Origin: Rhizobium sp. NXC24
GTDB taxonomy: Bacteria > Pseudomonadota > Alphaproteobacteria > Rhizobiales > Rhizobiaceae
DNA: 64,000 nt
NCBI RefSeq assembly: GCF_002944315.1
Contig: NZ_CP024311.1
Coordinates: 3,076,501-3,140,500, forward strand
Direction of reading: 5' to 3'
This document shows, piece after piece, positions 11,006 through 40,383 of the stretch (positions are counted from its first letter, which is position 1; each line of letters begins with the position of its first letter). The notes beneath the pieces are model-generated. The model saw only the letters and a program-made list of their open reading frames with translations. It searched no databases and was not told the DNA's origin. The position numbers and the translations under genes were made by a program.

Positions 11006-11019
11006 TTTTAAGCTTAAAA
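11006..11019. promoter_or_regulatory. Palindromic operator candidate, site 1 (TTTTAAGCTTAAAA)
   Basis: This is a perfect 14-bp palindrome about 117 bases before the aminotransferase start, in an otherwise GC-rich region. Near-identical copies stand at 23872-23885, 31060-31073 and 31190-31203, with a weaker one at 16341-16354, all in intergenic DNA of the same catabolic island. A winged-helix dimer of the MarR type would bind a site of this size and symmetry. Confidence 0.55.
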
Positions 11020-11135
11020 CTTTTTCCTTGAAATACGTCTCGTTTTGGATAACCATCCCACGATGAAGGGCAAATCCGAGCGCCGTCATTCGCGACGGAA
11101 CGACCCGTTGACATCAGGATTTCAGGAAAAGTTCT

Positions 11136-12344
11136 TTGTCTCCTCCGCCATCGCACAGCTTGTCCGAAACCGCACGCAACCGAAACGCCTTCGAAGGCAT
11201 TCGCGCCCAGATCCGTGATCTGCGAACCGACAATATCGCCGTGCTTGCCAAGCGCGCTCGCGAGCTCGGCGGTGTTATTCCGCTATGGTTCGGCGAAGGC
11301 GACATGGTGACACCAGCCTTCATCCGCGACGCAGCCAAGAAGGCGCTGGACGAGGGCCAGACCTTCTACGTGCCGAACATGCGCGGCCTTCCGGCCCTGA
11401 ACGAAGCCCTCTGCGACTATCAGACCCAATGGCATGGCCGCCCCATCCCGATCGAGCGCACCACCGTCGCGCCCGGCGGCATGCAGGCGCTCTACATGGC
11501 CCTGGAGCTGCTGGTCGATGTCGGCACCAATGTCGTCTATGTCGCGCCGCAATGGCCGAATATCCACAATGCCATCCATCTAATCGGCGGTGAGCCACGC
11601 CCGGTGTCGCTCGATTTCGACACAGATTGGCGGCTCGACATCGACAAGCTCTTCGCGCGCTGCGATGCCCGCACCCGCGCCATCTTTCTGTCGACGCCTG
11701 CCAATCCAACCGGATGGACGGCAACACGCGAGGAGATGCAGGCGCTGCTCGATTTCAGCCGCCGTACCGGCATCTGGATCATCTCCGATGAAGTCTATGC
11801 CCGCCTCTATTTCCACGGAGAGATCGCACCGTCGATCCTTCAGGTGGCCGACGATGGCGACCGGGTGATCGCCGTCAACAGTTTCTCCAAGGCCTGGGCG
11901 ATGACCGGCTGGCGCATCGGCTGGCTTACACACCCCTCGGCCATTGCCGATCAGCTCGGCGCCATGACGCAATACGTAAACAGCGGCACCTCGGCGATGG
12001 TCCAGGCGGGCGGCGTCGCGGCGATCCGCGAGGGCGAGCCGCTGATCGCCGAAATCCGCGCCAGGATCAAAGCCGGCCTCGATCTCGCCTATGAAAAGCT
12101 GCCGCAGATACCTGGCATCATCCTGCCGGAAAAGCCGCGCGGCGGCATGTATGCTTTCTTCGCGCTTGAAGGCGAAGCCGATGCGACGGCAGTCTGCGAG
12201 CGCATTCTCGAAACAGCGCGCGTTGGCCTCGCGCCCGGCTATCACTTCGGGGAATCCGCGCGCGCATTCCTGCGCATGTGCACATTCCGGGACACCGAAC
12301 AGATGCGTGTCGCACTCGATCGCATGGTCGACGCGATGAAATGA
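11136..12344 (+). CDS. Class I/II pyridoxal-phosphate aminotransferase
   Basis: The 402-residue enzyme is a fold-type I aspartate/aromatic-type aminotransferase: NPTGWTATREEM (the NPxG motif), ISDEVYARLYF (Asp and Tyr contacting PLP), NSFSKAWAMTGWRIGW with the catalytic Lys in SFSKAW, and the C-terminal substrate arginine region near RAFLRMCTF. It starts with TTG preceded by AGGAAAA; no better start is in frame. An amino-acid-type ABC binding protein and permease follow. The operator in front and the indolepyruvate oxidoreductase in the same island make tryptophan (giving indolepyruvate) an attractive substrate, but this is inferred from context. Confidence 0.85.
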   Translation: MSPPPSHSLSETARNRNAFEGIRAQIRDLRTDNIAVLAKRARELGGVIPLWFGEGDMVTPAFIRDAAKKALDEGQTFYVPNMRGLPALNEALCDYQTQWHGRPIPIERTTVAPGGMQALYMALELLVDVGTNVVYVAPQWPNIHNAIHLIGGEPRPVSLDFDTDWRLDIDKLFARCDARTRAIFLSTPANPTGWTATREEMQALLDFSRRTGIWIISDEVYARLYFHGEIAPSILQVADDGDRVIAVNSFSKAWAMTGWRIGWLTHPSAIADQLGAMTQYVNSGTSAMVQAGGVAAIREGEPLIAEIRARIKAGLDLAYEKLPQIPGIILPEKPRGGMYAFFALEGEADATAVCERILETARVGLAPGYHFGESARAFLRMCTFRDTEQMRVALDRMVDAMK

Positions 12345-12423
12345 CGGCCCCGCCCATAGCGGCGGACCGGCAATACCCGCGGGCAGATGGCGCCGGCGGT
12401 CATAACCAGAGGGAGACAATCAA

Positions 12424-13221
12424 ATGAATTTTACCCGTCGTAATCTACTGGTCCTTGCGACCGTCGTCGGCATGGCCGGCGGCAGCCACTTCGCCTATGC
12501 CGCCGACGTGCTGAATGTCGGCTCCTATCCGAACAATCCGCCATTTGAATACAAGACCGACAGCGGTACCTTCGAAGGCTTCGAGGTCGATATCGTCAAC
12601 GAGGCTGCCAAGCGCGCCGGCATGACGACCAACATAGCCGACTATGGCTTCCAGGCCCTGTTTGCCGCCACCAGCTCCAAGCGCATCGATGTGGCGATCT
12701 CCTCGATCACCATCACGCCGGAGCGTCTGAAATCGCAGTCCTTCACCCAGCCCTATTACGATTCCGACATGGGTATCGCCACCAAGGACGGTAGCGCGAT
12801 CAAAGGGCTCGCCGATCTCAAGAGCAAGACCATCGGCGTCCTTTCCGGCTCGACCGGCGAGAAGTGGGTCAACGACAACAAGGCCGCCAACGGTTTTGCC
12901 GACGTCAAGGGTTACAACGCCCAGCAAGATATGTTCCTCGATCTCGGCGCCGGCCGCATCGATGCCGTCGTCAGCGACATTCCCGGCATGCAATATCTCT
13001 TCGTCAAGACCAAGGGCTTTGCCATCAAGGATCGCATCAAGACCGGCGAACAATACGGCCTGATGATGGCCAAGGATTCGCCGCTCGTCGCCAAGATCAA
13101 CGACGCCATCACTGCGATGAAGAAGGACGGTACGCTCGAAAAGATCCACGAAAAGTGGTTTGGCAGCAAGGCGCCCGCCGGCTCCTCCACCGTCACCGAA
13201 ATGCCTATCCCCAAGGCGTGA
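12424..13221 (+). CDS. ABC transporter substrate-binding protein, polar amino-acid family
   Basis: The 265-residue family 3 solute-binding protein has a cleavable signal peptide (RRNLLVLATVVGMAGGSHFAYA-A) and the family signatures GFEVDIVNEAAKRAG and LTPERLKS-type (ITPERLKSQSFTQPYY). It should bind an amino acid or related compound in the periplasm and pass it to the permease just downstream. GAGGGAGA lies before the ATG. It follows the aminotransferase by 79 bases, so uptake and transamination of the same amino acid is a reasonable model. Confidence 0.9.
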   Translation: MNFTRRNLLVLATVVGMAGGSHFAYAADVLNVGSYPNNPPFEYKTDSGTFEGFEVDIVNEAAKRAGMTTNIADYGFQALFAATSSKRIDVAISSITITPERLKSQSFTQPYYDSDMGIATKDGSAIKGLADLKSKTIGVLSGSTGEKWVNDNKAANGFADVKGYNAQQDMFLDLGAGRIDAVVSDIPGMQYLFVKTKGFAIKDRIKTGEQYGLMMAKDSPLVAKINDAITAMKKDGTLEKIHEKWFGSKAPAGSSTVTEMPIPKA

Positions 13222-13315
13222 TCAAAAGATCATTTTCGTTGAAATCTCTACGCCGGCCCTCTCGGCCGGCGTAATTGTGCTAGACCTTCATTCTGTTCGC
13301 CTGATGGGAGTGCCA

Positions 13316-13990
13316 ATGTCGCTCGTCGATACTTTCTTCAATTCCGACGTCATGATTTCGGCCTTCCCCCAATTGCTGCGCGGTCTCTGGATGACGCTGG
13401 CGCTCGGCGTGGTCAGCATCCTCATCGGCGTTTCCGGCGGGCTCGTCGTCAGCCTGATCCGCCTTTATGCGCCGAAGCCCTTCCGGCTGCTGACGGTCGC
13501 CTATATCGACATCATGCGCGCCATGCCGATGCTCGTGGTGCTGATCCTGATCTACTACGCCCTGCCCTTTGTCGGCATCAGCTTCTCGGCCTGGTGGTCT
13601 GCGATCCTGGGCTTCTCGATCGTGCTGGCCGCCTATTCCGCGGAAGTCTTCCGGTCCGGCATTGAGAGCGTACCGCGCGGTCAGTTCGAAGCCGCCGCCG
13701 CTCTCGGCATTCCCTTCCTGGTAACGCTCTATAAGGTCGTGCTGCCGCAGGCGATCCGCATCGTCATTCCGCCGACCACGAGCAATTGCGTCTCGATGTT
13801 CAAGGATACGTCGCTCGCTTCGACCGTGGCTTTGCCGGAACTCTTGAAGGAGGGACAGAATGCGCAGGGCTTCTATGCTAACCCCTCGCCGCTGATCATG
13901 GCCGCGCTGATCTATATCATCCTGCTCTGGCCGATGGTGCGGCTTGTGAGTGTGCTCGAAAAGAGATTCAAGAGCGAGAAGGCGCGGTAG
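13316..13990 (+). CDS. ABC transporter permease, polar amino-acid (HisM/GltK) family
   Basis: This is a multi-span permease with the inner-membrane-component signature EAAAALGIPFLVTLYKVVLPQAIRIVIPP (EAA loop contacting the ATPase) and the N-terminal GLWMTLALGVVSI helix. ATG 13316 has GGGAG five bases before it; a second in-frame ATG is at 13304, and the frame is open further upstream without support. The gene lies 94 bases after the binding protein. No ATP-binding subunit is encoded next to it, which is unusual; it must borrow one or use a gene elsewhere. Confidence 0.88.
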   Translation: MSLVDTFFNSDVMISAFPQLLRGLWMTLALGVVSILIGVSGGLVVSLIRLYAPKPFRLLTVAYIDIMRAMPMLVVLILIYYALPFVGISFSAWWSAILGFSIVLAAYSAEVFRSGIESVPRGQFEAAAALGIPFLVTLYKVVLPQAIRIVIPPTTSNCVSMFKDTSLASTVALPELLKEGQNAQGFYANPSPLIMAALIYIILLWPMVRLVSVLEKRFKSEKAR

Positions 13991-14090: not shown

Positions 14091-14103
14091 GCGGTAATAG
14101 CCA

Positions 14104-14619
14104 TCAATCGAAGGCAGCACCGGAAAGGTGATTGTTAACGGACGCCTTCACTCCGCCAATATCCTTCCAGACTTCGGCGATTATGGCGGGATCGACATCG
14201 GCCATCATGTCCCGCAACCAGCCCTCATGGGCGGCGGCCATGGCGGTGAACAGCTCCTCGCCCTTCTTCGTCAGCCTGGCGACCGTCACGCGCCGGTCAC
14301 CGTCGGGCGTCGCACGCAGAACCAGGCCATCCGTTTCCAGCCGCTCGACCAATCCCGTCACATTGCCGTTGGTGACCATCGTACGCTTGGAAAGTTCGCC
14401 AAGCCGCAGGCCCTCGCGCTCACGATAGAGCTGGGCCATCAGGTCGAATTGCGGCAAGGTCGCGCCGAACTCGTTGCGAAGGCGGCGGCGGATTTCCTGC
14501 GATATCAGCTTTGTGGTCGACAGCATGCGCAGCCAGAGCCGCAGCTCCTGCTTTTTGCCCTCTTGTGTCCCCTGGACGATGATTTCCAGATCGACGGTTT
14601 CACTTTCGGACTCAGCCAT
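14104..14619 (-). CDS. MarR-family transcriptional regulator
   Basis: The 171-residue protein has a winged helix-turn-helix (LRLGELSKRTMVTNGNVTGLVERLETDGL) and wing (ATPDGDRRVTVARLTKKGEE) flanked by dimerisation helices. It lies in the same direction as, and 98 bases downstream of, the FAD-oxidoreductase gene, but has its own candidate promoter. MarR proteins commonly repress aromatic-compound catabolism and release DNA on binding an aromatic acid or its CoA thioester. It is one of two MarR genes in the island and a candidate for binding either shared operator motif. Confidence 0.92.
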   Translation of the reverse strand: MAESESETVDLEIIVQGTQEGKKQELRLWLRMLSTTKLISQEIRRRLRNEFGATLPQFDLMAQLYREREGLRLGELSKRTMVTNGNVTGLVERLETDGLVLRATPDGDRRVTVARLTKKGEELFTAMAAAHEGWLRDMMADVDPAIIAEVWKDIGGVKASVNNHLSGAAFD

Positions 14620-14661
14620 GATGTCAGCTCAAATCACCGCGTTGCAATTTCATACACGAAC

Positions 14662-14690: not shown

Positions 14691-14717
14691 AGGTTTACGC
14701 GTCAAGCTCGAAGACAG

Positions 14718-16286
14718 TCATTTCGCCAGCATTTTCCCCAGCATGAAGCCGGAGCCGGCGCCCGTACCCGCGCCCGGCCAGGTAGACGCGCCGCACATAT
14801 AGAGCGAGCCGACAGGCGTCTTATAGCGCGAATAGCCGGCGACCGGGCGAAACAGGAAATTCTGGTCGAGGTGGTGGCTGCCGGAAAGATTATCGCCGCC
14901 GATCAGATTGGGATTTTCACGTTCGAGATCGAGGGGCGAAAACACCGACCGGCCCAATATCTTCGTCCGCAAACCCGGCGCATAGCGCTCGATGATGTCG
15001 AGCACACGCTCGGCATAGGCGTCTTTCACCTCGTCCCAACTTCCTCCATTGATCTCACCAGCCGCATCGCGACTGAACTCCGCCGGCAGAACACGAACCT
15101 GTATCCAGAGCACATGCTGTCCATCCGGCGCACGCGACGGGTCGATCGCCGTCGGCTGGCCCACCACCAATGCCGGCTCGACCGGCAAAAGCCCGCCCAT
15201 TGCCTCGGCATAGACACGCGACATCATCTCCAGATCCGGCGCAATGTGGATATAGGCGAATGTCTTGAGCTCCTTGCCGGCCGTCCAATCCGGCAGACCA
15301 GAGAGCGCCAGATGGATCATCATCGTACCGGGTCCGGCGCGGAAGCGGGCAAGCCTGCGGTCGAACTCCTGGCGCGAAGCATCCTGATCGAGAAGCTTTC
15401 CGAACAGGATCTGCGGATGGACATTGGCGATGACAGCGCGCTTGGCTTCATAACGGCGCCCATCGGCAAGCACGACACCAGTCGCCTTGCCGCCGCTGGT
15501 GACGATCTTGTCGACGCGCGTGCCTAACATCAGCTCGCCACCTTTGGCCTTGAGCACGCCGACCATCGCCTTCACGATCGTATCTGCACCCCCTTTGCCG
15601 ATCACCATGCCGAATGCCTGGTTGGCCATCGATTCAAGATAGGGAAAAAGCGCGCCGCCGGCGACATCGGGAGCGAAATCGAGATGCAGCCCCCAGGCGG
15701 CCATCATCGTCTTGAGCTTGGCATTCTGGAATCGCGCATCGAGAAAATCGCGTGGCGAGGCAAACAGCATCCGCGCGGTGTCATAGAGCCAGCCGGCCCC
15801 CTTTGCCCGCCACGCCTTCCAGACGACTCCTGCCGCAGCCACCGACGGCATCGGTGCACCGAGCAGGCCGAAAATATGGGGCGCATCCGAACCAAATTCC
15901 GACAGCATGGCCCGCCAGGCAGCAGCATCCTGCGGCGAAATATCGGCGATCGCACCCGTGGTCTTTTCCAGATCGGTGCTGACACCGAGATAGGTGCCGT
16001 CGCGGAAGACGCTGGCAAAACAATCGACCGCCGGCACAAAGCCGAGGCCCTCGGCGATCAATTCGTTCTTGTACTGCGCGAAAAAGGCGGAGCCGGCGAA
16101 CATCGAGAGATTCATGGCGCAAAGGTCATGCCGAAAGCCCGGCAGCGTCACCTCGCGGGTTTTCACGGCACCGCCCGGCTCGGCATTGCCCTCGATGACG
16201 GCAACCTTCCAGCCTTTCGCCGCCAGATGCACCGCCGCCGCCAAGCCATTATGACCGGCGCCTACAATGATCGCATCATAGCTCAT
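14718..16286 (-). CDS. FAD-dependent oxidoreductase, phytoene-desaturase-like family (copy 1)
   Basis: The 522-residue protein begins MSYDAIIVGAGHNGLAAAVHLAA, a Rossmann FAD-binding motif (GAGxxG), with EGNAEPGGAVKTRE following. The C-terminal flavin motif is LYMCGASTWPGAGTGAGSGF. It belongs to the crtI/amine-oxidase superfamily (NAD(P)/FAD-dependent oxidoreductases). ATG 16286 is chosen because GAGGG stands before it and the Rossmann motif starts at residue 4; a longer frame to 16334 lacks this. It is paralogous to the protein at 17547-19136, and the two flank an isatin-hydrolase-like gene. That context suggests oxidation of an indolic intermediate rather than carotenoid desaturation; no crt genes are present. 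Confidence 0.85.
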   Translation of the reverse strand: MSYDAIIVGAGHNGLAAAVHLAAKGWKVAVIEGNAEPGGAVKTREVTLPGFRHDLCAMNLSMFAGSAFFAQYKNELIAEGLGFVPAVDCFASVFRDGTYLGVSTDLEKTTGAIADISPQDAAAWRAMLSEFGSDAPHIFGLLGAPMPSVAAAGVVWKAWRAKGAGWLYDTARMLFASPRDFLDARFQNAKLKTMMAAWGLHLDFAPDVAGGALFPYLESMANQAFGMVIGKGGADTIVKAMVGVLKAKGGELMLGTRVDKIVTSGGKATGVVLADGRRYEAKRAVIANVHPQILFGKLLDQDASRQEFDRRLARFRAGPGTMMIHLALSGLPDWTAGKELKTFAYIHIAPDLEMMSRVYAEAMGGLLPVEPALVVGQPTAIDPSRAPDGQHVLWIQVRVLPAEFSRDAAGEINGGSWDEVKDAYAERVLDIIERYAPGLRTKILGRSVFSPLDLERENPNLIGGDNLSGSHHLDQNFLFRPVAGYSRYKTPVGSLYMCGASTWPGAGTGAGSGFMLGKMLAK

Positions 16287-16689
16287 TGATTTGATCCCTC
16301 TTATGTCGTGATTATTATTGGCATATGCATACATTTTGAGCTTTAAGCTTCAAGTACCGGCGACGGAAAATTGCCGTGAACAACCACAACCAAATGTCGT
16401 TTCCGCAGGAAAATAGCGCATAAATAGCCTTTATTTTCCGGCGATTGCGTGCGTTGCAGGTGACGGCCCACCTGTGCCGTTTTTGGTCCTTGAACCACCG
16501 GCGGAATGCTTGCAATATCATATATTGTAACATAGGCTCGCCATCATCCAGCCGCCGCTGGACGGGCCCTTTGCGATGTGAGGAACGCGGCCGCGCTCTC
16601 GGCGGCAACGGCTTTCGAGCTTGGTCCTGAACCGAAGGCTCCAGCAGGGTTTTCGGAACAAGACCATACCAAACCACGGGGAACCCAAC
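16287..16689. other. Divergent control region between FAD oxidoreductase and isatin-hydrolase-like gene
   Basis: This is a 403-base region with an AT-rich half nearest the FAD gene. It holds the shared element described at 16324-16354 and a further inverted repeat, CAATAT-CAT-ATATTG, at about 16511-16525. The last 130 bases before the hydrolase are GC-rich and show no clear promoter. A 120-codon frame on the minus strand has no coding character and is taken as chance. Confidence 0.5.
16324..16354. promoter_or_regulatory. Shared element (TATGCATA...TGAGCTT) plus weak palindromic site
   Basis: Bases 16324-16345 match 19 of 22 positions of 23770-23791 in the same orientation: both begin TATGCATA and contain TGAGCTT. 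Overlapping the end is CTTTAAGCTTCAAG (16341-16354), matching 11 of 14 positions of the TTTTAAGCTTAAAA palindrome. It stands 38 bases upstream of the FAD-oxidoreductase ATG, as expected for an operator or -35 region. Confidence 0.45.
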
Positions 16690-17472
16690 ATGACCACCAA
16701 TACTCTTGCCAGCTTAGCCACGGCCCTTGTTTCGGGCTCTATCAAGGTCGTCGATCTGACCGCGCCGCTCGGCCCCGAAACCCCGGTGCTTTACCTGCCG
16801 CCGCAGTTCGGCAAGAACACGCCGTCGGTCAAAGTACACAAGATTTCCGAATATAATCAGGACGGTCCGTTCTGGGCCTGGAACTGGCTGGAACTCGGCG
16901 AACACACCGGCACGCATTTCGACGCGCCCTGCCACTGGATCACCGGCAAGGACAATCCGAACAATACGACCGACACCATCCCGCCGCAGAACTTCGTCGC
17001 TCCAGTCAACGTCATCGACCGTTCGAAGGAAGCCGCGGCCAATCCGGACTATCTGCTGACGGTCGACAGCATCAAGGAATGGGAAGCCGAGCATGGCGCT
17101 ATCGAAGCCGGCACCTGGGTGGTCCTGCGCACCGATTGGTACAAGCGCAACGGCTCAACCGAAGCCTTTCTCAATGCCGATGAAAACGGCCCGCATTCGC
17201 CGGGCCCGACCGCCGAGGCGATCGAATATCTACTGACGAAGGGCATCATCGGCTGGGGTTCGGAAACGATAGGCACCGACGCCGGCTCCGCGGGCGGCAT
17301 GAACCCGCCTTTCCCGGCCCATAACCTGATGCACAAGAACAATCGCTACGGCCTCGCCAGCCTCTCCAACCTCGATCAGCTTCCGCCCAAGGGCGCCGTG
17401 CTGATCGCCGCACCGCTGAAATTCGTCAAGGGCACGGGCTCTCCGGTGCGCGCGCTGGCCTTGATAGCCTGA
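16690..17472 (+). CDS. Cyclase-family metal-dependent hydrolase, isatin-hydrolase-like
   Basis: The 260-residue protein has the cyclase/kynurenine-formamidase-fold metal motif HTGTHFDAPCHW (HxGTHxDxPxH) and the C-terminal stretch LSNLDQLPPKGAVLIAAPLKF. The length (about 260 rather than the ~210 of KynB) and the neighbours favour isatin hydrolase, which opens isatin to isatinate in indole-3-acetate and isatin breakdown, over kynurenine formamidase. There is no kynureninase or tryptophan dioxygenase nearby. The start is set at ATG 16690, close to GGGGAA; an upstream in-frame extension to 16621 is not supported. It leads an operon with the second FAD oxidoreductase and a MarR gene. Confidence 0.75.
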   Translation: MTTNTLASLATALVSGSIKVVDLTAPLGPETPVLYLPPQFGKNTPSVKVHKISEYNQDGPFWAWNWLELGEHTGTHFDAPCHWITGKDNPNNTTDTIPPQNFVAPVNVIDRSKEAAANPDYLLTVDSIKEWEAEHGAIEAGTWVVLRTDWYKRNGSTEAFLNADENGPHSPGPTAEAIEYLLTKGIIGWGSETIGTDAGSAGGMNPPFPAHNLMHKNNRYGLASLSNLDQLPPKGAVLIAAPLKFVKGTGSPVRALALIA

Positions 17473-19163: not shown

Positions 19164-19670
19164 ATGGAGGAGCGGTTTTCAGGCACCGTTTTGCGGCGTA
19201 GCCGAGAGAATACCGAGAAGCGTCCGACCATGGGCGAAATAGGGCTCAATCATTTCGCCCCCTATCTGATGAACCGGCTGATGGCCCGCTGGAACATCAA
19301 CATGTCGGAAGAGCTGCGCGAATACGACATGACGACCGCAAAAATGCGGGCGCTCGCCGTTCTCAGCGTCTCTTCCTCGGTCACCATCAACGAACTCTCC
19401 GTCTTTGCCGTCACCGAACAATCGACAATGAGCCGCACGCTGGACTCCCTGGAGCAACAGGGTTTCATTCGCCGCCAGCCCCGCACCGAGGACATGCGCA
19501 TCCGTGACGTCTCCATCACCGAAGAAGGCCGCACCGCCTTCGAAAAGGTGTGGCCGACCATGTATGACCTGTTTCTGCAGATGTTCGATGGCGTGGAGGA
19601 AACGGAATACCGGGCGTTCATCTCGACGCTGCATAAGGTGCTGCACAATATCCGCAAGCATGAGATTTGA
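19164..19670 (+). CDS. MarR-family transcriptional regulator
   Basis: The 168-residue protein has the MarR winged helix (VTINELSVFAVTEQSTMSRTLDSLEQQGFIRRQ) and the wing with the conserved Asp-Arg-like turn (RTEDMRIRDVSITEEG). The first ~22 residues are not conserved in type; an internal ATG at 19230 would also give a complete domain. As the last gene of the isatin-hydrolase/FAD operon it is the best candidate for the repressor of the island, whose 14-bp palindromes fit a MarR dimer. This pairing is inferred from position only. Confidence 0.9.
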   Translation: MEERFSGTVLRRSRENTEKRPTMGEIGLNHFAPYLMNRLMARWNINMSEELREYDMTTAKMRALAVLSVSSSVTINELSVFAVTEQSTMSRTLDSLEQQGFIRRQPRTEDMRIRDVSITEEGRTAFEKVWPTMYDLFLQMFDGVEETEYRAFISTLHKVLHNIRKHEI

Positions 19671-23885: not shown

Positions 23886-23959
23886 CATTCCGAAAATAAA
23901 TCGCCAGCGGCAGGCGGGCGTCACGCTTTTCTGCCGCTTAACAGGGGAACGGAGTGACC

Positions 23960-25495: not shown

Positions 25496-25520
25496 TGTTT
25501 GGCTCCGCTTTTGCGGCGCT

Positions 25521-25680
25521 GCCCCTCACCCTAGCCCTCTCCCCGTTATGACTGGGAGAGGGAACGACCCCCGGTTCCCTCGCGTGAACACGTCGTTAGG
25601 GCTAGGCTGCGGGTGCCTCCTTCCCCTTCTCCCCGTCAGAACGGGGAGAAGGTGCCCGACAGGGCGGATGAGGGGCTTGG
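25521..25680. repeat. Intergenic mosaic palindromic repeat
   Basis: The stretch contains CCCTCTCCC/GGGAGAGGG (25535-25543/25554-25562) and CCTTCTCCCCGT/ACGGGGAGAAGG (25625-25636/25641-25652), and CCCTAGCC answered by GGCTAGG-like sequence. This wording is characteristic of dispersed rhizobial mosaic elements (RIME-like). It lies inside an operon, between the binding protein and the first permease, so the RNA could fold here and lower expression of downstream genes relative to the binding protein. Confidence 0.6.
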
Positions 25681-25723
25681 GGCTCTCATCACCACCAGCG
25701 GATGCCATCGGAATCCTGAACAC

Positions 25724-30944: not shown

Positions 30945-31059
30945 GGTTCGCTCCCGCATTCCTCTCGACCCAATTGCCACCCAACACCCAATCTCCCGGC
31001 AGCGCGTGCGGCATTGTCGAAAATGATTGCACCGAAGACACAAATGTTCAAGCAAGAAA

Positions 31060-33564: not shown

Positions 33565-33571
33565 GGCACGC

Positions 33572-34360
33572 ATGACGACGTCTGGCAAACTCGCGAACCG
33601 TCACGCCCTCGTCACCGGCGCCGGGAGCGGCATCGGCGCGGCGATCGCGCGGGCGCTCGCGGCGGAGGGCGCACGCGTGACGCTTGCTGGGCGAAGAAAG
33701 GAACCGCTGGAGGTCGTCGCCGCCGAGATCGGCGCGAATGCCATCGTCGTCGACGGTTTCGACGTCACCAGCGTCGAAGCGATCGCGAGTGGGCTGAACA
33801 TTGCGCGCGAAAAATTCGGTCCTGTCGATATTCTCGTCAACAATGCCGGCGAAGCACCGACTGCGCCTTTCGAAAAAACCAGCCTGGATATGTGGAACCA
33901 CGTCCTGACGGTCGATCTCACCGGCGTTTTCCTGGTGACGCAGGCCGCCCTACCGGACCTCAAAGCGCATGGCGCCGGCGCGCGCATCATCAACATTGCC
34001 TCGACGGCGGGCCTGACCGGCTACGGCTACGTATCCGCCTATGTTGCCGCCAAGCACGGCGTCGTCGGCCTGACGCGGTCACTGGCGCTGGAGCTTGCAA
34101 AGACTGGCATCACCGTCAATGCCGTCTGCCCCGGTTTCACCGATACACCGATCATCGAACGCTCGATCGCCACCATCGCCGCCAAGACGGGACGCACGGC
34201 GGAACAGGCGCTTACGGAATTCACCAAATCCAATCCGCAGGGACGGCTCGTCAAACCCGAGGAGGTTGCGGACACCGTTCTATGGCTGGCATCGCCGGCG
34301 GCGGCATCGATCAATGGACAGGCAATCGCGGTTGCCGGTGGGGAGGTTTTAGCGGGATGA
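33572..34360 (+). CDS. SDR-family 3-hydroxyacyl-CoA dehydrogenase-like oxidoreductase
   Basis: The 262-residue short-chain dehydrogenase has the nucleotide motif [19 protein letters not shown], the serine of [13 protein letters not shown], and catalytic YVAAK. Only 7 bases separate it from the monooxygenase/reductase stop, so ATG 33572 is preferred over an in-frame start inside that gene. In the 2-aminobenzoate pathway an SDR oxidises a hydroxyacyl-CoA intermediate; this gene is well placed for that step. Confidence 0.88.
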
Positions 34361-35208
34361 GCGATCGGGACATGACGATGCAGGGCCATCTCAAGCCCTT
34401 CAAAGATTACAAGCCGCAACATTTCCTCTGGGAGGTCAGCGATGACGGCCGCGTCGCTACGATCCGGCTGAACCGGCCGGAACGTAAAAACCCGCTGACC
34501 TTCGACAGCTATGCCGAGCTGCGCGATCTCTTCCGTGATCTCACCTATGCATCGGATATACGCGCCGTGGTGTTGACCGGAGCGGGCGGCAATTTCTCTT
34601 CCGGCGGCGATGTCTTCGAGATCATCGAGCCGCTGACCCGCATGGCGATGCCCGAGCTTCTCGCCTTCACCCGCATGACCGGCGATCTGGTGAAGGCCAT
34701 GCGCAAGTGCCCTCAGCCGATCATTTCCGCCGTCGACGGTATCTGCGCCGGTGCCGGTGCCATCCTCGCCATGGCCTCCGACTTGCGCTTGGCGACGTTC
34801 GAAGCCAAGACGGCTTTCCTCTTCACCCGCGTCGGCCTCGCCGGCGCCGATATGGGCGCATGCGGCATCCTTCCCCGCATCATCGGCCAAGGCCGTGCCG
34901 CCGAACTGCTGTTCACCGGCCGCTCGATGACATCGGCTGAGGGCCATGCCTGGGGTTTTTACAACAGCCTGCATGTGAGCGCCGATCTGGAGCAGGAAGC
35001 CGTCAAGCGCGCCCGCTCGCTGGCCGATGGGCCATGGTTCGCCCATGGCATGACCAAGACCATGCTGAACCAGGAATGGGCAATGGGTATCGACGAGATG
35101 ATCGAATCCGAGGCGCAAGCCCAAGCGGTTTGCATGGCAACTCAGGATTTCCGCCGCGCCTTCGAGGCCTTCGCCGCCAAGCGCAAGCCTGAATTCCAGG
35201 GGAATTGA
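34357..35208 (+). CDS. Enoyl-CoA hydratase/isomerase family protein
   Basis: The 283-residue crotonase-fold protein has the CoA/oxyanion motifs [15 protein letters not shown] and [21 protein letters not shown]. Its start overlaps the SDR stop as ATGA, preceded by GGAGG; the frame remains open upstream within the SDR gene but that is a shadow. The N-terminal extension ([27 protein letters not shown]) is longer than in canonical enoyl-CoA hydratases and recalls the family members found in aromatic-CoA clusters. It may hydrate or hydrolytically open the dearomatised ring. Confidence 0.88.
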
Positions 35209-35212
35209 GGCG

Positions 35213-36394
35213 ATGTCCGCGATATCAAGCCTCTCCGGTCCGAACCGGGATCATCTGGATTGGCCGTTCTTCGATGAACGCCACGGTGAATTCGCGGCTG
35301 AAGTGGACGCTTTCGCCAAATCTCCGGTTATGGCCGCCATCGACCACAGGGATGTCGACGGCGCTTGCCGCAAGCTGGTCAAGGCGCTTGGCAGTGCCGG
35401 CCTCCTCGCGGCAGCAACCGGCACCTCAGATAGTGATCCGCTGATCGATTGCCGCCTCGTCTGCCTCGCCCGCGAAACGCTCGCATGGCACGATGGTCTT
35501 GCCGATTTCGCCTTCGCCATGCAGGGCCTCGGCACCAGCGCAATCGGCCTTTCCGGCTCACCGGAACTGCGTGCCGCCGTGCTCCCGAAAGTTCGCGCCG
35601 GCGACTGGCTTTCCGCCTTCGCATTGTCGGAAAAGGATGCCGGCTCGGATGTTGCGGCGATGAGCTGTGCGGCCCGCGTCGATGGCGATCACTATGTCCT
35701 CGACGGTGAAAAGACCTGGATCTCCAATGGTGGCATCGCCGACGTCTACACCGTGTTTGCCCGCACCGGCGAGGCGCCGGGCACGCGCGGCATTTCCGCC
35801 TTCGTTATCTTCGCTGACGATCCGGGCTTCTCGATCGCCGAACGCATCGAAGTGATCGCGCCGCATCCGCTGGCGACGATCCGGTTCGAGAATTGCCGCA
35901 TTCCCGCCTCGCGGCGTCTCGGCGCGCCGGGCGAAGGCTTCAAGATTGCCATGCGCACGCTCGATATCTTTCGCGCCTCCGTTGCCGCCGCCAGCCTTGG
36001 CTTTGCGCGGCGGGCGCTGGATGAATCGCTGGCGCATGTCCGCACGCGACCGATGTTCGGCGCGACGCTCGGCGACCTTCAGTTGACGCAAGCAGCCCTC
36101 GGCGATATGGCGACCGGCATCGACGCGGCGGCCTTGCTCACCTATCGGGCGGCCTGGCGTCGCGACGTGCAGCATCTGCCGACGACGCGCGAGGCGGCCA
36201 TGGCCAAGATGGCGGCCACGGAAACCGCGCAAGCCGTCATCGACCGCGCCGTCCAGCTTTTCGGCGGACGCGGCGTCAAGGCAGGAGAAATAACGGAAAA
36301 ACTCTATCGGGAGATACGCGCACTTCGTATTTACGAAGGTGCGACGGAGGTTCAGAAACTGATCGTTGCGCGCGAACTTCTGAAGACAAATTGA
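35213..36394 (+). CDS. Acyl-CoA dehydrogenase family protein
   Basis: The 393-residue flavoprotein has the signatures [44 protein letters not shown], a C-terminal [34 protein letters not shown]. The catalytic Glu corresponds to that in RIYEGATE. It is one of two acyl-CoA dehydrogenases in tandem; this one is nearer general aromatic-cluster members. It starts 4 bases after the hydratase stop and overlaps the next gene's region, so it is co-transcribed. Confidence 0.9.
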
Positions 36395-36408
36395 TGGAGA
36401 TTGAGAGC

Positions 36409-37590
36409 ATGAGCCGCGAGATTTTCGACTGGGCCGACCCGTTCCGGCTGACGGAGCAGTTGAGCGACGATGAACGCATGGTGCTTGATACCGCACATTC
36501 CTACGCGCAGGAGAAACTGGCGCCCCGCGTCCTCGAAGCCTTCCGCCATGAGAAGACCGACCCGTCGATCTTCCGTGAAATGGGCGAACTCGGCCTGCTC
36601 GGTCCGACGATCGCGCCGGAGCACGGCGGCGCCGGCCTTGGCTATGTCGCCTATGGCCTGATCGCCCGTGAGGTCGAGCGCGTCGACAGCGGCTACCGCT
36701 CGATGATGAGCGTGCAATCCTCGCTCGTCATGGTGCCGATCAATGCCTTCGGTTCAGAAGAACAGAAGCAGAAGTATCTGCCGAAGCTCGCCACCGGCGA
36801 ATGGATCGGCTGCTTCGGCCTCACGGAACCTAACCACGGCTCCGATCCCGGCTCGATGGTGACCCGCGCCAAAAAGGTCGATGGCGGCTATAGCCTGACC
36901 GGTGCCAAGACCTGGATTTCTAATGCACCGATCGCCGACGTCTTCGTCGTCTGGGCCAAGACTGAAGACGGCGTTATCAGAGGCTTCATCCTGGAAAAGA
37001 GCTGGAAGGGCCTGTCAGCCCCCGCAATCCACGGCAAGGTGGGCCTGCGCGCCTCCATCACCGGCGAAGTCGTCATGGACAACGTCTTCGTGCCGGAAGA
37101 AAACCTGCTGCCGAACGTTTCCGGCCTCAAAGGCCCCTTCACCTGCCTGAACTCGGCCCGCTTCGGCATTGCGTGGGGCGCTCTCGGCGCGGCCGAGGAT
37201 TGCTACGCCAAGGCGCGGCAATATGTGCTCGACCGCAAACAGTTCGGCCGGCCGCTCGCTGCCAACCAGCTCATCCAGAAGAAGCTTGCCGACATGGTGA
37301 CCGAGATCACCCTCGGCCTGCAGGGTTGCCTGAGGCTCGGCCGCTTGAAGGAAGACGGCCATCCGCCGGTGGAGCTAACCTCGATCCTGAAGCGCAATAG
37401 CTGTGGCAAGGCGCTCGAGATCGCCCGCGCCGCCCGCGACATGCTCGGCGGCAACGGCATTTCCGACGAGTTCGGTATCGCCCGCCATCTCGTCAACCTC
37501 GAAGTCGTCAACACCTACGAAGGCACGCACGACATCCACGCCCTCATCCTCGGCCGTGCCATCACCGGCATCGCCGCTTTTTCGAACTGA
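36409..37590 (+). CDS. Glutaryl-CoA dehydrogenase-like acyl-CoA dehydrogenase
   Basis: The 393-residue enzyme has the glutaryl-CoA dehydrogenase layout: [77 protein letters not shown] and [21 protein letters not shown], with the catalytic Glu in TYEGTHD. That family oxidises and decarboxylates glutaryl-CoA to crotonyl-CoA. A C7 ring-cleavage product shortened by beta-oxidation would yield glutaryl-CoA, so it plausibly finishes the pathway. ATG 36409 gives the conserved start [11 protein letters not shown] 36394, overlapping the previous stop, is the alternative. Confidence 0.85.
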
Positions 37591-37598
37591 GGCCGGCC

Positions 37599-38030
37599 TT
37601 GGCATTCAAAACCACCAGACCCCTGCGCTTCGGAGACTGCGATCCCTCGGGGATCGCCTATTTCCCGTCGTATCTGAACATCCTCGTCGGGGTGCTGGAG
37701 GATTTTTTCGGCTCGTTGGGTTTTCCCTGGAAGGCGCTGGTCAACGACCGCCGCATCGGCGTGCCGACCGTACGGCTCGACTTGACCTTCGTGCGCCCTG
37801 GCTTTCAGGGCGATGAGCTTGATTTCATGGTGGCGGTGCGCGGCATCGGTCGTTCCTCGCTCGATCTGGAACATCAGGTTTCGGCGAATGGTCAAGTCCT
37901 ATGGACCGCCCGCCATCGTGTCGTTTCCACCTCCCTCGACACTCATCAATCGCTTGCGTGGCCGGACGATATCCGCGCTGCGCTGACCTCTCATCTGGAG
38001 ATGACCGATGCACACCATCCTGCAACCTGA
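37599..38030 (+). CDS. Acyl-CoA thioesterase, 4-hydroxybenzoyl-CoA thioesterase-like
   Basis: The 143-residue hot-dog-fold protein has the motif FGDCDPSGIAYFPSYLNIL, containing the catalytic Asp (D-P-S/A-G-I) of the YbgC/4-hydroxybenzoyl-CoA thioesterase family. It starts at TTG 8 bases after the preceding stop. In CoA-dependent aromatic pathways such enzymes release CoA from dead-end thioesters. Its end overlaps the RidA-like gene by 23 bases. Confidence 0.82.
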   Translation: MAFKTTRPLRFGDCDPSGIAYFPSYLNILVGVLEDFFGSLGFPWKALVNDRRIGVPTVRLDLTFVRPGFQGDELDFMVAVRGIGRSSLDLEHQVSANGQVLWTARHRVVSTSLDTHQSLAWPDDIRAALTSHLEMTDAHHPAT

Positions 38031-38403
38031 AGGCTGGGCCAAGCCGATCGGCTATGCCAATGGCATGGCGGCGACCGGTCGCATGGTGTTCGTCGGCGGA
38101 CAGGTCGGCTGGAACGCCGCTTGCGAATTCGAGAGCGACGATTTCGTCGAGCAGGTGCGCCAGACGCTGAAGAATGTCGTCGCCATTCTCGCCGAGGGCG
38201 GCGCCAAGCCGCAGCACATCACCTCGATGACCTGGTATTTCACGGACAAGAGCGAATATCTCGCCAATCTCAAGGGCATCGGCCAGGTCTATCGCGAGAT
38301 CATCGGCCGGCATTTTCCGGCCATGGCCGCCGTGCAGGTCGTCGCCCTCGTAGAGGACCGCGCCAAGATCGAGATCCAGGCGACCGCCGTTATTCCGGAA
38401 TAG
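38008..38403 (+). CDS. RidA-family (YjgF/YER057c) enamine/imine deaminase-like protein
   Basis: The 131-residue protein matches the RidA/UK114 fold: GRMVFVGGQVGWNA, EQVRQTLKNVVAILAEGGAKPQHITSMTWYFTDKSEY, FPAMAAVQVVALVEDRAKIEIQATAVIP. RidA proteins hydrolyse reactive enamines and imines. This copy lacks the canonical Arg of RPxxT (here FPAMAAV), so the archetypal activity may be altered. In this operon an enamine/imine arises when 2-aminobenzoyl-CoA is dearomatised, so release of ammonia from it is a sensible role. GGAGATG lies before its ATG, inside the thioesterase gene. Confidence 0.85.
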   Translation: MHTILQPEGWAKPIGYANGMAATGRMVFVGGQVGWNAACEFESDDFVEQVRQTLKNVVAILAEGGAKPQHITSMTWYFTDKSEYLANLKGIGQVYREIIGRHFPAMAAVQVVALVEDRAKIEIQATAVIPE

Positions 38404-38415
38404 GGTGGGCTCACC

Positions 38416-40383
38416 ATGTCGGCATCGCGCTTTTCGGATACTGTTTCGGCGACGCTGACCGATGACGTTCTCGTCGTCACCATCGACAATCCGCCCGTCA
38501 ACGCGCTCTCGGCCGATGTCCGCGCCGGTTTGATGGCGGCACTCGATCATGCCGAAAAGGATAGTGCAGTCGTTGCCGTCATATTGACGGGGACCGGAAA
38601 CACCTTCATCGGCGGCGCCGACATCAAGGAGTTCGGCAAGCCGCCGATCGAGCCGCTGCTGCCGCTGGTTATCGCCCGCGTCGAAAAGTTTGCCAAACCC
38701 GTTGTCGCCGCCATCAACGGTGCAGCCTTGGGGGGCGGCCTGGAAGTGGCGCTTGCCTGCCATGAGCGTATTGCCAGCCCTTCCGCGAAAATCGGCCTGC
38801 CGGAAGTCAAGCTCGGCATCGTTCCCGGTGCCGGCGGTACGCAACGCCTGCCACGCCTGATCGGCACCGTCGCAGCCATCGAACTGATCGCCAACGGCCG
38901 CATTGTCTTGGCCAATGAAGCGGACAAGCTCGGTATCATCGATAGCCTGATCGAAAACTCGCTGATCGACTCAGCTATTGTCAGCGCCAGAAGCGCAGCC
39001 GATGTCCCTTTGAGACGTACCGGTACATTGCCCGTCCCGCCAGGCTCTCAGGAAGCCATCGACAAAGCGGCCGCGGAAGCGCTTCGCAAGGCGCGTGGTC
39101 AGCGAGCGCCCGCCGAAGCCGTCCGTCTTATTCGCATAGCCGCGACGACATCGCTGGCGGAAGGGCTCGCCGAGGAACGCCGCACGTTCGTCACCCTTCG
39201 CGATAGCGATGAGGCAGCGGCGCTACGCCACGTCTTCTTTGCGGAACGCGCCGCCGGCAAGGTCGACGGCCTGGAAAAGGTCTCGCCGCGCAAAATCAAA
39301 ACCGTAGGTATCGTCGGTACCGGCCTGATGGGGTCCGGCATTGCGGTGGCCGCGCTGAACGCCGGCTATGGCGTCATCGGTATCGAGCAAACCCGCGAAG
39401 CTGCAGACAAGGGCCGTGAGCGCATAGCCGGCATCCTCGACAAGGCCGTGCAATCAGGCCGCCTCGATACCGCAGGCCGGGACGATCGCCTGAGCCGGCT
39501 GACGGTCGCCGCCGATGCGGCAGAACTCGCGCAAGCCGATCTGGTCATCGAGGCCGTCTTCGATGATCTGACCGTCAAGACCGAGCTTTTCCAACGCCTC
39601 GACGGTATCCTTCGCACCGACGCCATCCTTGCAACCAACACAAGCTATCTCGACCCTGATGCCATTGCCACCGCAACCGCCCATCCCGAGCGGGTCGTCG
39701 GCCTGCACTTCTTCTCGCCCGCCAACATCATGCGGCTGCTGGAGGTCGTGAACTGCAAAAGGACTGCGCCGGATGTGCTCGCCAGCGCGCTGGCCTTCGC
39801 CAAGCGGCTTGGCAAACTTCCCATCGTCTGCGGCGTCACCGAAGGCTTCATCGGCAATCGCATTTTTTCCGCCTATCGCCGAGAGGCCGAATTCATGGTC
39901 GAAGACGGCGCGCTGCCGCATGAAATCGATGCGGCGCTGGAGGTCTATGGCTTCCCCATGGGCCTCTTTGCCGTCTACGATATGGCCGGCCTCGAAATCG
40001 CCTGGGCGCGGCGCAAACGCCAGGCGGCAACGCGCGATCCCGCCGCCCGCTATGTCGTCATCGCCGATCGCCTCTGCGAAGCCGGTCGCTTCGGCCAAAA
40101 GGTTGGGCGCGGCTGGTACAGCTATCCGGATGGCAAGCGCACGGTGGACGCCGAAGTCACGGCGCTGATCAAAGCCGCCCGCGCGGAAAAGGACATAACA
40201 CCAAAGAGCTTTACCGCAGATGAGATCGTCACCCGGCTGTTGAAGGCCATGGCGGATGAAGGCGATGCACTCCTGGCCGAGGGGATCGCCGCCCGCGCCA
40301 GCGATATCGATCTGGTGATGATCAACGGCTACGGCTTTCCGCCTCACAAGGGCGGCCCGATGTTCGCGGCTGGGCGTCGCTGA
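38416..40383 (+). CDS. Bifunctional enoyl-CoA hydratase/3-hydroxyacyl-CoA dehydrogenase (FadB-like), C-terminus short
   Basis: The 655-residue protein has a crotonase domain at ~1-190 (NGAALGGGLEVALACHERI, GAGGTQRLPRLIG), a linker, an NAD-binding 3-hydroxyacyl-CoA dehydrogenase domain from ~295 (VGIVGTGLMGSGIAVAALNAGYG), and C-terminal helical domains (HFFSPANIMRLLEVV, FIGNRIFSAYRREAEFM, GFPMGLFAVYDMAGLEI). It ends at GFPPHKGGPMFAAGRR, where homologues usually continue for about 35-40 residues. It may be a natural truncation or a frameshift near 40365. It lies 12 bases after RidA, last in the operon. Confidence 0.87.
   Translation: MSASRFSDTVSATLTDDVLVVTIDNPPVNALSADVRAGLMAALDHAEKDSAVVAVILTGTGNTFIGGADIKEFGKPPIEPLLPLVIARVEKFAKPVVAAINGAALGGGLEVALACHERIASPSAKIGLPEVKLGIVPGAGGTQRLPRLIGTVAAIELIANGRIVLANEADKLGIIDSLIENSLIDSAIVSARSAADVPLRRTGTLPVPPGSQEAIDKAAAEALRKARGQRAPAEAVRLIRIAATTSLAEGLAEERRTFVTLRDSDEAAALRHVFFAERAAGKVDGLEKVSPRKIKTVGIVGTGLMGSGIAVAALNAGYGVIGIEQTREAADKGRERIAGILDKAVQSGRLDTAGRDDRLSRLTVAADAAELAQADLVIEAVFDDLTVKTELFQRLDGILRTDAILATNTSYLDPDAIATATAHPERVVGLHFFSPANIMRLLEVVNCKRTAPDVLASALAFAKRLGKLPIVCGVTEGFIGNRIFSAYRREAEFMVEDGALPHEIDAALEVYGFPMGLFAVYDMAGLEIAWARRKRQAATRDPAARYVVIADRLCEAGRFGQKVGRGWYSYPDGKRTVDAEVTALIKAARAEKDITPKSFTADEIVTRLLKAMADEGDALLAEGIAARASDIDLVMINGYGFPPHKGGPMFAAGRR

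What the first reader, a model, noticed from the sequence alone, without database searches (positions are those of the whole stretch)
11006..40383. Candidate catabolic island from tryptophan/indolics through isatin and 2-aminobenzoyl-CoA
Within 29 kb lie an aminotransferase, indolepyruvate oxidoreductase, an isatin-hydrolase-like enzyme flanked by two FAD oxidoreductases, 2-aminobenzoate-CoA ligase, 2-aminobenzoyl-CoA monooxygenase/reductase and a full beta-oxidation set, with two importers and two MarR regulators. Isatin hydrolase and anthranilate are known steps of rhizobial indole-3-acetate breakdown, and CoA activation with the monooxygenase/reductase is the known aerobic hybrid route for anthranilate. 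I know of no described pathway that joins indolepyruvate oxidoreductase, paired FAD enzymes and isatin hydrolase to that route in one locus. The known iac and iad genes for indole-3-acetate are not evident here, so the upper steps could be new.
Basis: partly seen in the sequence, partly recalled or inferred. Interest (0 to 1): 0.78.

Follow-up and report, generated by a model that had tools for sequence, protein, structure and literature searches.

The report
Isatin breakdown locus in Rhizobium
This Rhizobium gene cluster most likely breaks down oxidised indoles through isatin, and comparison across genomes suggests testable new roles for its 'indolepyruvate oxidoreductase' and its paired flavin enzymes.

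Summary
The genes are real and at the stated places. The hydrolase is a close relative of crystallised isatin hydrolase B (418 bits). The main novelty claim is partly wrong: published iad auxin loci already join indolepyruvate oxidoreductase (IadAB), MarRs and an isatin route. What differs is the upper part: the own genome shows no IadD-like Rieske oxygenase; two CrtO-like flavoenzymes flank the hydrolase instead. Of 67 named isatin-hydrolase loci of at least 20 kb, 64 keep IorA but only 12 the aminotransferase, so a tryptophan start is unlikely. Hydrolase, MarR and IorAB form a compact cassette in Sulfitobacter and Paracoccus plasmids; IorAB precedes the 2-aminobenzoyl-CoA monooxygenase in Caballeronia; Rhizobium sp. 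BK251 keeps the locus without the CoA ligase. Best reading: isatin is hydrolysed to isatinate, and IorAB turns that directly into 2-aminobenzoyl-CoA. The flavoenzymes probably oxidise dioxindole-type compounds to isatin; in relatives they sit beside indole-monooxygenase-type genes. Against: ligase loss is not significantly enriched, and flavoenzyme relatives occur without the hydrolase. No activity was tested. New variant of a known kind.

The parts
11136..12344 (+). PLP aminotransferase (PRK06108 family); peripheral, lineage-specific
   Evidence: 444.6 bits, over cut-off 422; in 12 of 67 loci
12424..13990 (+). amino-acid-type ABC binding protein (12424-13221) and permease (13160-13990), no ATPase found beside them; peripheral
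   Evidence: binding protein in 22, permease in 21 of 67 loci
14104..14619 (-). MarR regulator 1
   Evidence: in 29 of 67 loci
14718..16334 (-). FAD1, CrtO/CrtI-like FAD oxidoreductase; proposed dioxindole-type dehydrogenase (role inferred)
   Evidence: AlphaFold2 model pLDDT 86.4, best fold match 4rep carotene desaturase; in 54 of 67 loci
16621..17472 (+). isatin hydrolase, type B (isatin to isatinate)
   Evidence: 4j0n, 418 bits over residues 27-282; GEHTGTHFDAPxHW metal/active-site motif kept
17547..19136 (+). FAD2, paralogue of FAD1 (37% identity)
   Evidence: model pLDDT 86.7, best fold match 4rep; in 57 of 67 loci
19164..19670 (+). MarR regulator 2; nearest solved structures 3cjn and 7kym
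   Evidence: 7kym is among the codes deposited by the iad/iac MarR paper; in 62 of 67 loci
19859..21418 (-). IorB: 2-oxoacid oxidoreductase gamma-type domain plus DUF6537
   Evidence: NF006179, 711 bits, cut-off 348; in 63 of 67 loci
21428..23581 (-). IorA: TPP subunit with C-terminal cysteine motifs; proposed isatinate:acceptor oxidoreductase making 2-aminobenzoyl-CoA
   Evidence: tree of its homologues; in 64 of 67 loci
23954..29328 (+). Opp-type ABC importer: SBP_bac_5 binding protein, two permeases, two ATPases
   Evidence: binding protein in 49 of 67 loci
29334..31055 (-). benzoate/anthranilate-CoA ligase family; many homologues align from about residue 33, so the true start is probably near 30950
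   Evidence: (best PDB match 4wv3 anthranilate-CoA ligase, 288 bits)
31246..33564 (+). 2-aminobenzoyl-CoA monooxygenase/reductase (NCBIfam name: salicylyl-CoA 5-hydroxylase/oxidoreductase)
   Evidence: found in 47 of 47 locus-bearing genomes searched, in one of them only in pieces
33530..34360 (+). SDR dehydrogenase
34372..35208 (+). enoyl-CoA hydratase family (PRK08258); open frame extends from 33892
   Evidence: match starts at residue 162 of the long frame
35213..37590 (+). two acyl-CoA dehydrogenases (35213-36394, 36391-37590)
37599..38403 (+). 4HBT_2 thioesterase (37599-38030) and RidA-type imine/enamine deaminase (38008-38403)
38416..40383 (+). FadB/FadJ-like hydratase/3-hydroxyacyl-CoA dehydrogenase

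Best explanation
A modular locus for oxidised indoles that funnels into isatin. (1) The Opp-type importer brings in the substrate (inferred). (2) FAD1 and FAD2, CrtO-like flavin dehydrogenases, oxidise a dioxindole- or oxindole-type compound to isatin (inferred). In relatives, indole-monooxygenase-type, luciferase-type or, once, Rieske oxygenase genes stand beside them; the Rieske and indole-monooxygenase types were not found in this genome, and the luciferase type was sought only in the window. (3) Isatin hydrolase opens isatin to isatinate (2-aminophenylglyoxylate); homology to an enzyme with measured activity. (4) IorAB, a TPP- and iron-sulphur-dependent 2-oxoacid oxidoreductase annotated as indolepyruvate oxidoreductase, oxidatively decarboxylates isatinate with CoA to 2-aminobenzoyl-CoA, as phenylglyoxylate dehydrogenase makes benzoyl-CoA (inferred; the comparison is recalled). 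The CoA ligase would then salvage free anthranilate from outside or from leakage. (5) The monooxygenase/reductase, RidA and beta-oxidation enzymes degrade 2-aminobenzoyl-CoA (known type of pathway). MarR2 is the likely local regulator (inferred).
For: Hydrolase: 418 bits to 4j0n against 27 bits or less to kynurenine formamidases. IorA follows the hydrolase, not the aminotransferase: 64 against 12 of 67 loci; all 9 genomes with a true isatin hydrolase in a 289-genome class sample, the own one included, have IorA. Compact hydrolase-MarR-IorA-IorB cassettes without FAD1/FAD2-type genes in the stretches shown in Sulfitobacter indolifex and Paracoccus; IorA-IorB-thioesterase-monooxygenase/reductase with hydrolase a few genes on in Caballeronia. 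The hydrolase-linked IorA (69 of 69 rows) lie on one side of one branch with SH-aLRT 100, with 6 unlinked; 20 unlinked lie on the other side. Monooxygenase/reductase in 47 of 47 locus-bearing genomes searched, ligase not found at 1e-60 in 6 of 47; in BK251 the order is the window's but for the ligase. FAD role: SDR, StyA/indole-type monooxygenase and flavin reductase beside the core in several loci, whole set in Alloyangia, and SDR-monooxygenase-flavin reductase-transporter-FAD-hydrolase in Azospirillum; IifB makes 3-hydroxyindolin-2-one (review passages), one oxidation short of isatin.
Against: No enzyme or growth data. In Variovorax the region iadC-K2, without iadAB, sufficed for anthranilate from indole-3-acetate (preprint passages), so isatinate can reach anthranilate without IorAB. 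Ligase loss is not significantly enriched: 6 of 47 against 2 of 45 (Fisher p 0.27), and R. tubonense's contig ends beside the gene. In 5 of the 9 class genomes with the hydrolase (47-53% identity, the other type) IorA is on another contig, and one of the 9, G247, lacks the monooxygenase/reductase. IorA occurs in 34 class genomes without a true isatin hydrolase, one of them at 29% identity only, so the family has other substrates. FAD1-like genes occur without a neighbouring hydrolase in Cedecea, Halocatena, Agrobacterium leguminum, S. indolifex and M. loti NZP2037. Six of 67 loci with IorA lack both FADs. NCBIfam names the monooxygenase for salicylyl-CoA.
Confidence: 0.58

Rival explanations
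1. Classical route: isatin hydrolase makes isatinate, isatinate is decarboxylated to free anthranilate, and the ligase activates it. IorAB works on indolepyruvate or another aryl-2-oxoacid and is only a neighbour.
For: Anthranilate is a detected product of iad loci in print and arises without iadAB. The ligase is present in 40 of 47 locus-bearing genomes at 54% identity or more. IorA relatives occur without the hydrolase.
Against: Ligase not found in 6 of 47 genomes that keep hydrolase and monooxygenase. No aminotransferase in 55 of 67 loci. IorA is the steadiest neighbour of the hydrolase, 64 of 67.
Confidence: 0.27
2. Tryptophan pathway: aminotransferase to indolepyruvate, IorAB to indoleacetyl-CoA, FAD enzymes onward to isatin.
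For: The aminotransferase and an amino-acid importer lie beside the locus in the R. leucaenae/tropici group. IorAB annotation.
Against: Aminotransferase in 12 of 67 loci against IorA in 64. No Rieske (IadD-like) or StyA-type oxygenase to attack the indole ring in the own genome. No enzyme is seen that would remove the acetyl-CoA side chain; among the session's loci the thiolase of L150 had relatives of 32% or more only in L164, L166 and a fragment in L021, none in the window.
Confidence: 0.08
3. The FAD enzymes act on a different imported N-heterocycle and the isatin cassette is a second, merely co-located function.
For: FAD pair plus Opp importer lie 65 kb from the hydrolase cassette in S. 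indolifex. FAD1-like gene plus Opp importer stand beside molybdoenzymes in M. loti NZP2037.
Against: In the 289-genome class sample FAD1 at 1e-80 occurs in 3 genomes, exactly those with the FAD-type hydrolase locus. Both FADs and IorA in 53 of 67 loci.
Confidence: 0.2

Closest known systems
iad locus for indole-3-acetate (Variovorax, Achromobacter, Bradyrhizobium)
   Same: IorAB homologues (IadAB), MarR regulators, isatin and isatinic acid as intermediates; a kynurenine-formamidase-annotated hydrolase, IadI
   Different: no IadD-like Rieske protein in the genome and no IadG-like thiolase in the window; two CrtO-like FAD enzymes and an Opp importer instead; own lower pathway to 2-aminobenzoyl-CoA in the same locus
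iif/ind indole clusters (Acinetobacter, Cupriavidus)
   Same: relatives of this locus carry an indole-monooxygenase-type gene, flavin reductase and SDR
   Different: [quoted passage not shown] here the route would pass through isatin and hydrolysis; the monooxygenase was not found in the window's genome
Isatin hydrolase B of Labrenzia aggregata (4j0n)
   Same: sequence over the whole domain, active-site motif
   Different: that work concerns the enzyme; the paper on the related type A has no occurrence of 'operon' or 'ferredoxin'
Aerobic 2-aminobenzoyl-CoA pathway (Azoarcus type, recalled; Cupriavidus)
   Same: ligase, monooxygenase/reductase, beta-oxidation enzymes
   Different: coupled to isatin hydrolase and IorAB; ligase not found in some relatives
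Phenylglyoxylate dehydrogenase (recalled)
   Same: proposed reaction: arylglyoxylate plus CoA to aroyl-CoA, CO2 and reduced acceptor
   Different: subunit make-up (recalled); no sequence comparison was made here

Membership tests
isatin hydrolase | higher similarity to solved isatin hydrolases than to kynurenine formamidases | tested here: met
   418 bits to 4j0n, 298-311 to three further isatin hydrolase sequences, 27 or less to kynurenine formamidases
isatin hydrolase | metal and catalytic residues (His69, His73, Asp75, His79, Asp193, His207 in LaIHA) | tested here: met
   H69, H73, D75, H79, D194, H208 invariant in 5 aligned sequences, trimmed numbering; residues from the paper's passages. 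The partial ligand Gln219 of LaIHA is Ala here and in 4j0n (alignments)
isatin hydrolase | Mn2+-dependent hydrolysis of isatin | not testable with these tools
   needs an assay
iad locus | IorA/IorB homologues (exclusive markers in the published survey) | tested here: met
   not aligned to the Variovorax proteins themselves
iad locus | IadDE Rieske oxygenase | tested here: not met
   own genome: no match at 1e-30 to the Rieske protein of L150, itself 466 bits to PDB 7yls; of the three own Rieske proteins two were compared with PDB and are nearest to a demethylase-type group, 4qup/3vca/3n0q. That 7yls is IadD is recalled; the paper text does not give the code
iad locus | IadF CoA ligase and IadG thiolase for side-chain removal | tested here: not met
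   tblastn with the thiolase of L150 gives no hit of 32% identity or more in the window; the genome was not searched for it, nor for an IadF
2-oxoacid:ferredoxin oxidoreductase (indolepyruvate type) | TPP domain, gamma-type domain, iron-sulphur cysteines | tested here: met
   PF02775, PF01558, C-terminal cysteines at 622-674; no PDB chain matched IorA by sequence
2-oxoacid:ferredoxin oxidoreductase (indolepyruvate type) | indolepyruvate as the substrate | not testable with these tools
   score 290.8 against a cut-off of 650.9 for the IOR alpha equivalog, so the name is not assured
aerobic 2-aminobenzoyl-CoA pathway | fused flavin monooxygenase plus Old-Yellow-Enzyme reductase | tested here: met
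   PF01494 plus PF00724, NF006101 over cut-off
aerobic 2-aminobenzoyl-CoA pathway | substrate 2-aminobenzoyl-CoA rather than salicylyl-CoA | tested here: inconclusive
   NCBIfam name is salicylyl-CoA; RidA in the operon and an anthranilate-CoA ligase as best PDB match of the ligase favour the amino compound
CrtO beta-carotene ketolase | curated cut-off of NF045689 | tested here: not met
   226.3 and 150.8 bits against a cut-off of 1000
iif/ind indole cluster | two-component indole monooxygenase | tested here: not met
   none in the own genome at 1e-15 with the L183 protein; a relative of that protein is present in 15 of 48 genomes of that call

The most novel reading that the evidence does not exclude
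The enzyme called indolepyruvate oxidoreductase in iad-type and related loci is in truth an isatinate:acceptor oxidoreductase that forms 2-aminobenzoyl-CoA directly. Isatin would then be a true, conserved catabolic hub that bypasses free anthranilate and is fed by exchangeable oxygenase modules, with a new pair of carotenoid-desaturase-like flavoenzymes making isatin from dioxindole.
Probability: 0.45. Interest if true: 0.68.

Novelty: new variant of a known kind. Interest (0 to 1): 0.56.

Why it matters
A 2018 review lists as open whether isatin takes part in indole degradation at all, notes that no gene of the iif cluster makes or uses it, and says the isatin hydrolase gene deserves functional study (PMC6221969, passages). 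The loci here supply a complete candidate gene set, including a plasmid-borne one with an indole-monooxygenase-type gene, so the question becomes directly testable. If IorAB uses isatinate, a marker gene of auxin-degrading operons gains a reaction, and other 'indolepyruvate oxidoreductase' annotations in Alphaproteobacteria need a second look. For plant-associated rhizobia it points to use of oxidised indoles.

Tried and rejected
Tryptophan start by the aminotransferase: rejected as a core step, 12 of 67 loci. Rieske entry step in this strain: rejected. Kynurenine formamidase identity of the hydrolase: rejected. An alternative upper pathway in the gap between MarR2 and IorB of L028, L030, L040: the two inserted genes, annotated in L030 and in the same clusters in the others, are a VirJ-domain protein and a lysylphosphatidylglycerol-synthase-type protein, unrelated. 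IorA against PDB by sequence: no match. Fold comparison of the FAD enzymes: carotene desaturase first (4rep, TM 0.73 and 0.77), then phytoene desaturase, an archaeal oxidoreductase, nicotine and amine oxidases; it gives no substrate. Ligase loss as a statistical argument: not significant; kept only as single cases. The IorA and monooxygenase/reductase association over 289 genomes is strong (32 of 43 against 21 of 246) but confounded by general aromatic catabolism and kinship; the 43 include G256, a 29% match.

Rows dropped or changed: one search gave 14 genomes; 5 with matches of 34-40% identity were not counted as isatin hydrolase. 48 of the 80 loci, chosen by me for spread, were given, of which 47 could be searched (L101 not held); G395 holds the monooxygenase only in pieces and a 35% ligase match. 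One search scored only the top candidates of a first look per genome. In the tree (quick method) the window's own IorA was lost as a duplicate row, and L024, from the nearest named species, stands in for it; L109 and L110 were relabelled by me as linked from their longer stretches; loci were held for only part of the class genomes with IorA; and 4 of the 20 rows labelled unlinked (L128, L130, L131, L133) come from genomes with a 47-53% hydrolase on another contig. The Fisher tables were made from handle lists that I copied by hand.

Full report
WHAT IS THERE. The window lies at G000:C1:3076501-3140500 of a 7.3 Mb genome; the nearest named relatives by the hydrolase are Rhizobium leucaenae USDA 9039 (98%) and Rhizobium sp. 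SEMIA4064 (96%) (records of the own genome may be left out there). The hydrolase matches isatin hydrolase B, 4j0n, with 418 bits and kynurenine formamidases with 27 bits or less, and keeps the metal and catalytic residues. The two flanking oxidoreductases are paralogues (37% identity) in the CrtO/CrtI superfamily (FAD1 also 16); AlphaFold2 models (pLDDT 86.4 and 86.7) match gamma-carotene desaturase 4rep best.

WHAT IS KNOWN. Published iad loci for indole-3-acetate carry IorAB homologues as exclusive markers, a second MarR, and run through isatin and isatinic acid to anthranilate (PMC9613470, passages). A 2025 preprint (PMC12633357, passages) assigns steps to IadCDE, F, G, H, I and J; its text has no occurrence of 'iadA', and the region iadC-K2 sufficed for anthranilate. 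So the link between indolepyruvate oxidoreductase and the isatin route is in print, against the finding; a reaction for IadAB is not, in what I read. I made nine paper searches; eight bear on novelty. No listing or passage that I saw joins isatinate with 2-aminobenzoyl-CoA formation, or FAD pairs with isatin hydrolase, for 'isatinate' with '2-aminobenzoyl-CoA', gave no paper. Most listed papers I saw as listings only, and the library holds open-licence papers only.

WHAT COMPARISON SHOWS. Of 67 loci with at least 20 kb, IorA is near in 64, IorB 63, MarR2 62, FAD2 57, FAD1 54, the Opp-type binding protein 49, MarR1 29, the amino-acid binding protein 22, the aminotransferase 12; both FADs with IorA in 53; IorA without either FAD in 6; none of the three in 3. 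In 289 genomes drawn from the class, true isatin hydrolase (47% identity or more) occurs in 9 including the own one, and all 9 have IorA. In 4 of the 9 the two are neighbours; in the other 5, with hydrolases of 47-53%, they are on different contigs, and one of these, G247, lacks the monooxygenase/reductase. FAD1 at 1e-80 occurs in 3 of 289, exactly the FAD-type loci. In the IorA tree, 95 rows with the window's own row absent as a duplicate, one branch with SH-aLRT 100 separates 75 rows, 69 of them hydrolase-linked, from 20 unlinked rows; 4 of the 20 are from genomes with a hydrolase elsewhere. Named replicons show hydrolase-MarR-IorA-IorB as a compact cassette in Sulfitobacter indolifex and Paracoccus, and IorA-IorB-thioesterase-monooxygenase/reductase with MarR and hydrolase a few genes on, and no ligase in the stretch shown, in Caballeronia.

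WHY IORAB IS PROBABLY AN ISATINATE ENZYME. The hydrolase product, isatinate, is an aryl-2-oxoacid, and this enzyme family turns 2-oxoacids into acyl-CoAs (established knowledge, recalled). The next enzyme of the locus needs 2-aminobenzoyl-CoA. The monooxygenase/reductase is found in 47 of 47 locus-bearing genomes searched (in G395 only in pieces), while the ligase is found at 54% identity or more in 40, at 35% in G395, and not at 1e-60 in 6: R. tubonense, AFS022961, an Agrobacterium MAG, Rhizobium sp. BK251, Rhizobium sp. FKL33 and Devosia equisanguinis. In BK251 the order IorA, Opp importer, monooxygenase/reductase, SDR, hydratase, two dehydrogenases, thioesterase, RidA, FadB matches the window with no ligase between importer and monooxygenase. 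Limits: R. tubonense's contig ends about 350 bases upstream of the monooxygenase gene, just where the ligase would lie; all six are drafts or MAGs by their titles; and the enrichment is not significant (6 of 47 against 2 of 45, p 0.27; 7 or 5 of 47 give p 0.16 or 0.44).

WHY THE FAD PAIR PROBABLY MAKES ISATIN. In eight fetched stretches (L089, L091, L101, L103, L152, L183, L186, L187; L183 supplied the query) a StyA-type monooxygenase of 61% identity or more stands near the core or the monooxygenase/reductase, with a related SDR in all eight and a related flavin reductase in seven. Plasmid annotation calls such relatives styrene/indole monooxygenase, and the L183 protein scores 220 bits against a StyA cut-off of 550, so it is a relative and not StyA. 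13 of 48 genomes hold it at 62% or more, two more at 31-35%, the own genome not. Alloyangia pacifica carries monooxygenase, flavin reductase, SDR, monooxygenase/reductase, hydrolase, both FADs, IorAB, importer and an AMP-binding protein in about 27 kb. Azospirillum thermophilum has SDR, monooxygenase, flavin reductase, a transporter, one FAD enzyme (36% to FAD1) and the hydrolase (56%), without IorAB in the stretch. In iif clusters such an SDR yields 3-hydroxyindolin-2-one; isatin lies one dehydrogenation away. Other loci carry a luciferase-type monooxygenase (L087, L088, L096, L098, L102; L103, L186, L187 and, in part, L101 have it as well as the StyA type) or an IadD-like Rieske protein (L082), and L150 has a Rieske protein, thiolase and AMP ligase before hydrolase-IorA-IorB and the lower genes, without FADs. 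L096 and L150 have no FADs. Eight of the 47 locus-bearing genomes hold an IadD-like protein of 46-48% somewhere. The oxygenases therefore look exchangeable and the isatin core constant. Against this: FAD1-like genes also occur away from hydrolases.

WHAT REMAINS OPEN. The window's genome shows neither the Rieske nor the StyA-type oxygenase, so the strain may import already oxidised indoles, or use an enzyme not recognised. The luciferase type of L187 has no match of 32% or more in the window and was not sought in the genome; an NtaA/DmoA-type FMN monooxygenase of that wider fold lies at 44608-45954, but nothing ties it to the locus. The substrate of the Opp-type importer is unknown. Why two FAD paralogues are needed is unknown; four loci keep only FAD2 and one only FAD1. 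The curated name of the monooxygenase is for salicylyl-CoA; RidA and the ligase's best match favour the amino compound, without proof.

VERDICT. Observation confirmed; interpretation partly supported. The locus is best filed as a new variant of isatin-route catabolism: a lower part shared with iad-type loci, a different upper part, and a proposed reassignment of IorAB. It fails membership of the iad locus on the oxygenase; it works like the lower half of one.

Noticed in passing
21156-21249, - strand: ARAGORN calls a tRNA-Ser (anticodon act) inside the IorB reading frame on the same strand; probably a false positive.
   Followed up: partly
L147 and L149 (G238, G334): IorA relatives of 68-69% identity stand beside an Opp-type importer and, in L147, hydantoinase A/B genes without isatin hydrolase; perhaps another lactam-opening route into the same enzyme.
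   Followed up: no
L028, L030, L040: A VirJ-domain gene and a lysylphosphatidylglycerol-synthase-type gene (annotated in L030) are inserted between MarR2 and IorB.
   Followed up: no
L164, L166: Isatin hydrolases of 46-54% identity follow a thiolase-like gene; in L164 a ChsH2-type OB-fold/SDR fusion lies between and an AMP ligase follows, suggesting retro-aldol side-chain removal by analogy with steroid ChsH2/Ltp2 (analogy recalled).
   Followed up: partly
L184, L187, L198, L209: A fumarylacetoacetate-hydrolase-family gene, in L187, L198 and L209 with a cupin, stands downstream of the monooxygenase/reductase, a possible second lower pathway.
   Followed up: no
L206 (Mesorhizobium loti NZP2037 pML2037): A FAD1-like gene with an Opp importer stands beside two xanthine-dehydrogenase-type molybdoenzymes, perhaps for another N-heterocycle.
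   Followed up: no
L157 (G220): IorAB (61% IorA) lies near tryptophan 2,3-dioxygenase, kynureninase and 2-aminobenzoyl-CoA pathway genes without isatin hydrolase.
   Followed up: no
44608-45954: NtaA/DmoA-family FMN-dependent monooxygenase with a LysR regulator upstream; function unknown.
   Followed up: no
8879-9904: Metallo-beta-lactamase-fold protein nearest AidB-type lactonase, below the curated cut-off (152.9 of 360 bits).
   Followed up: no
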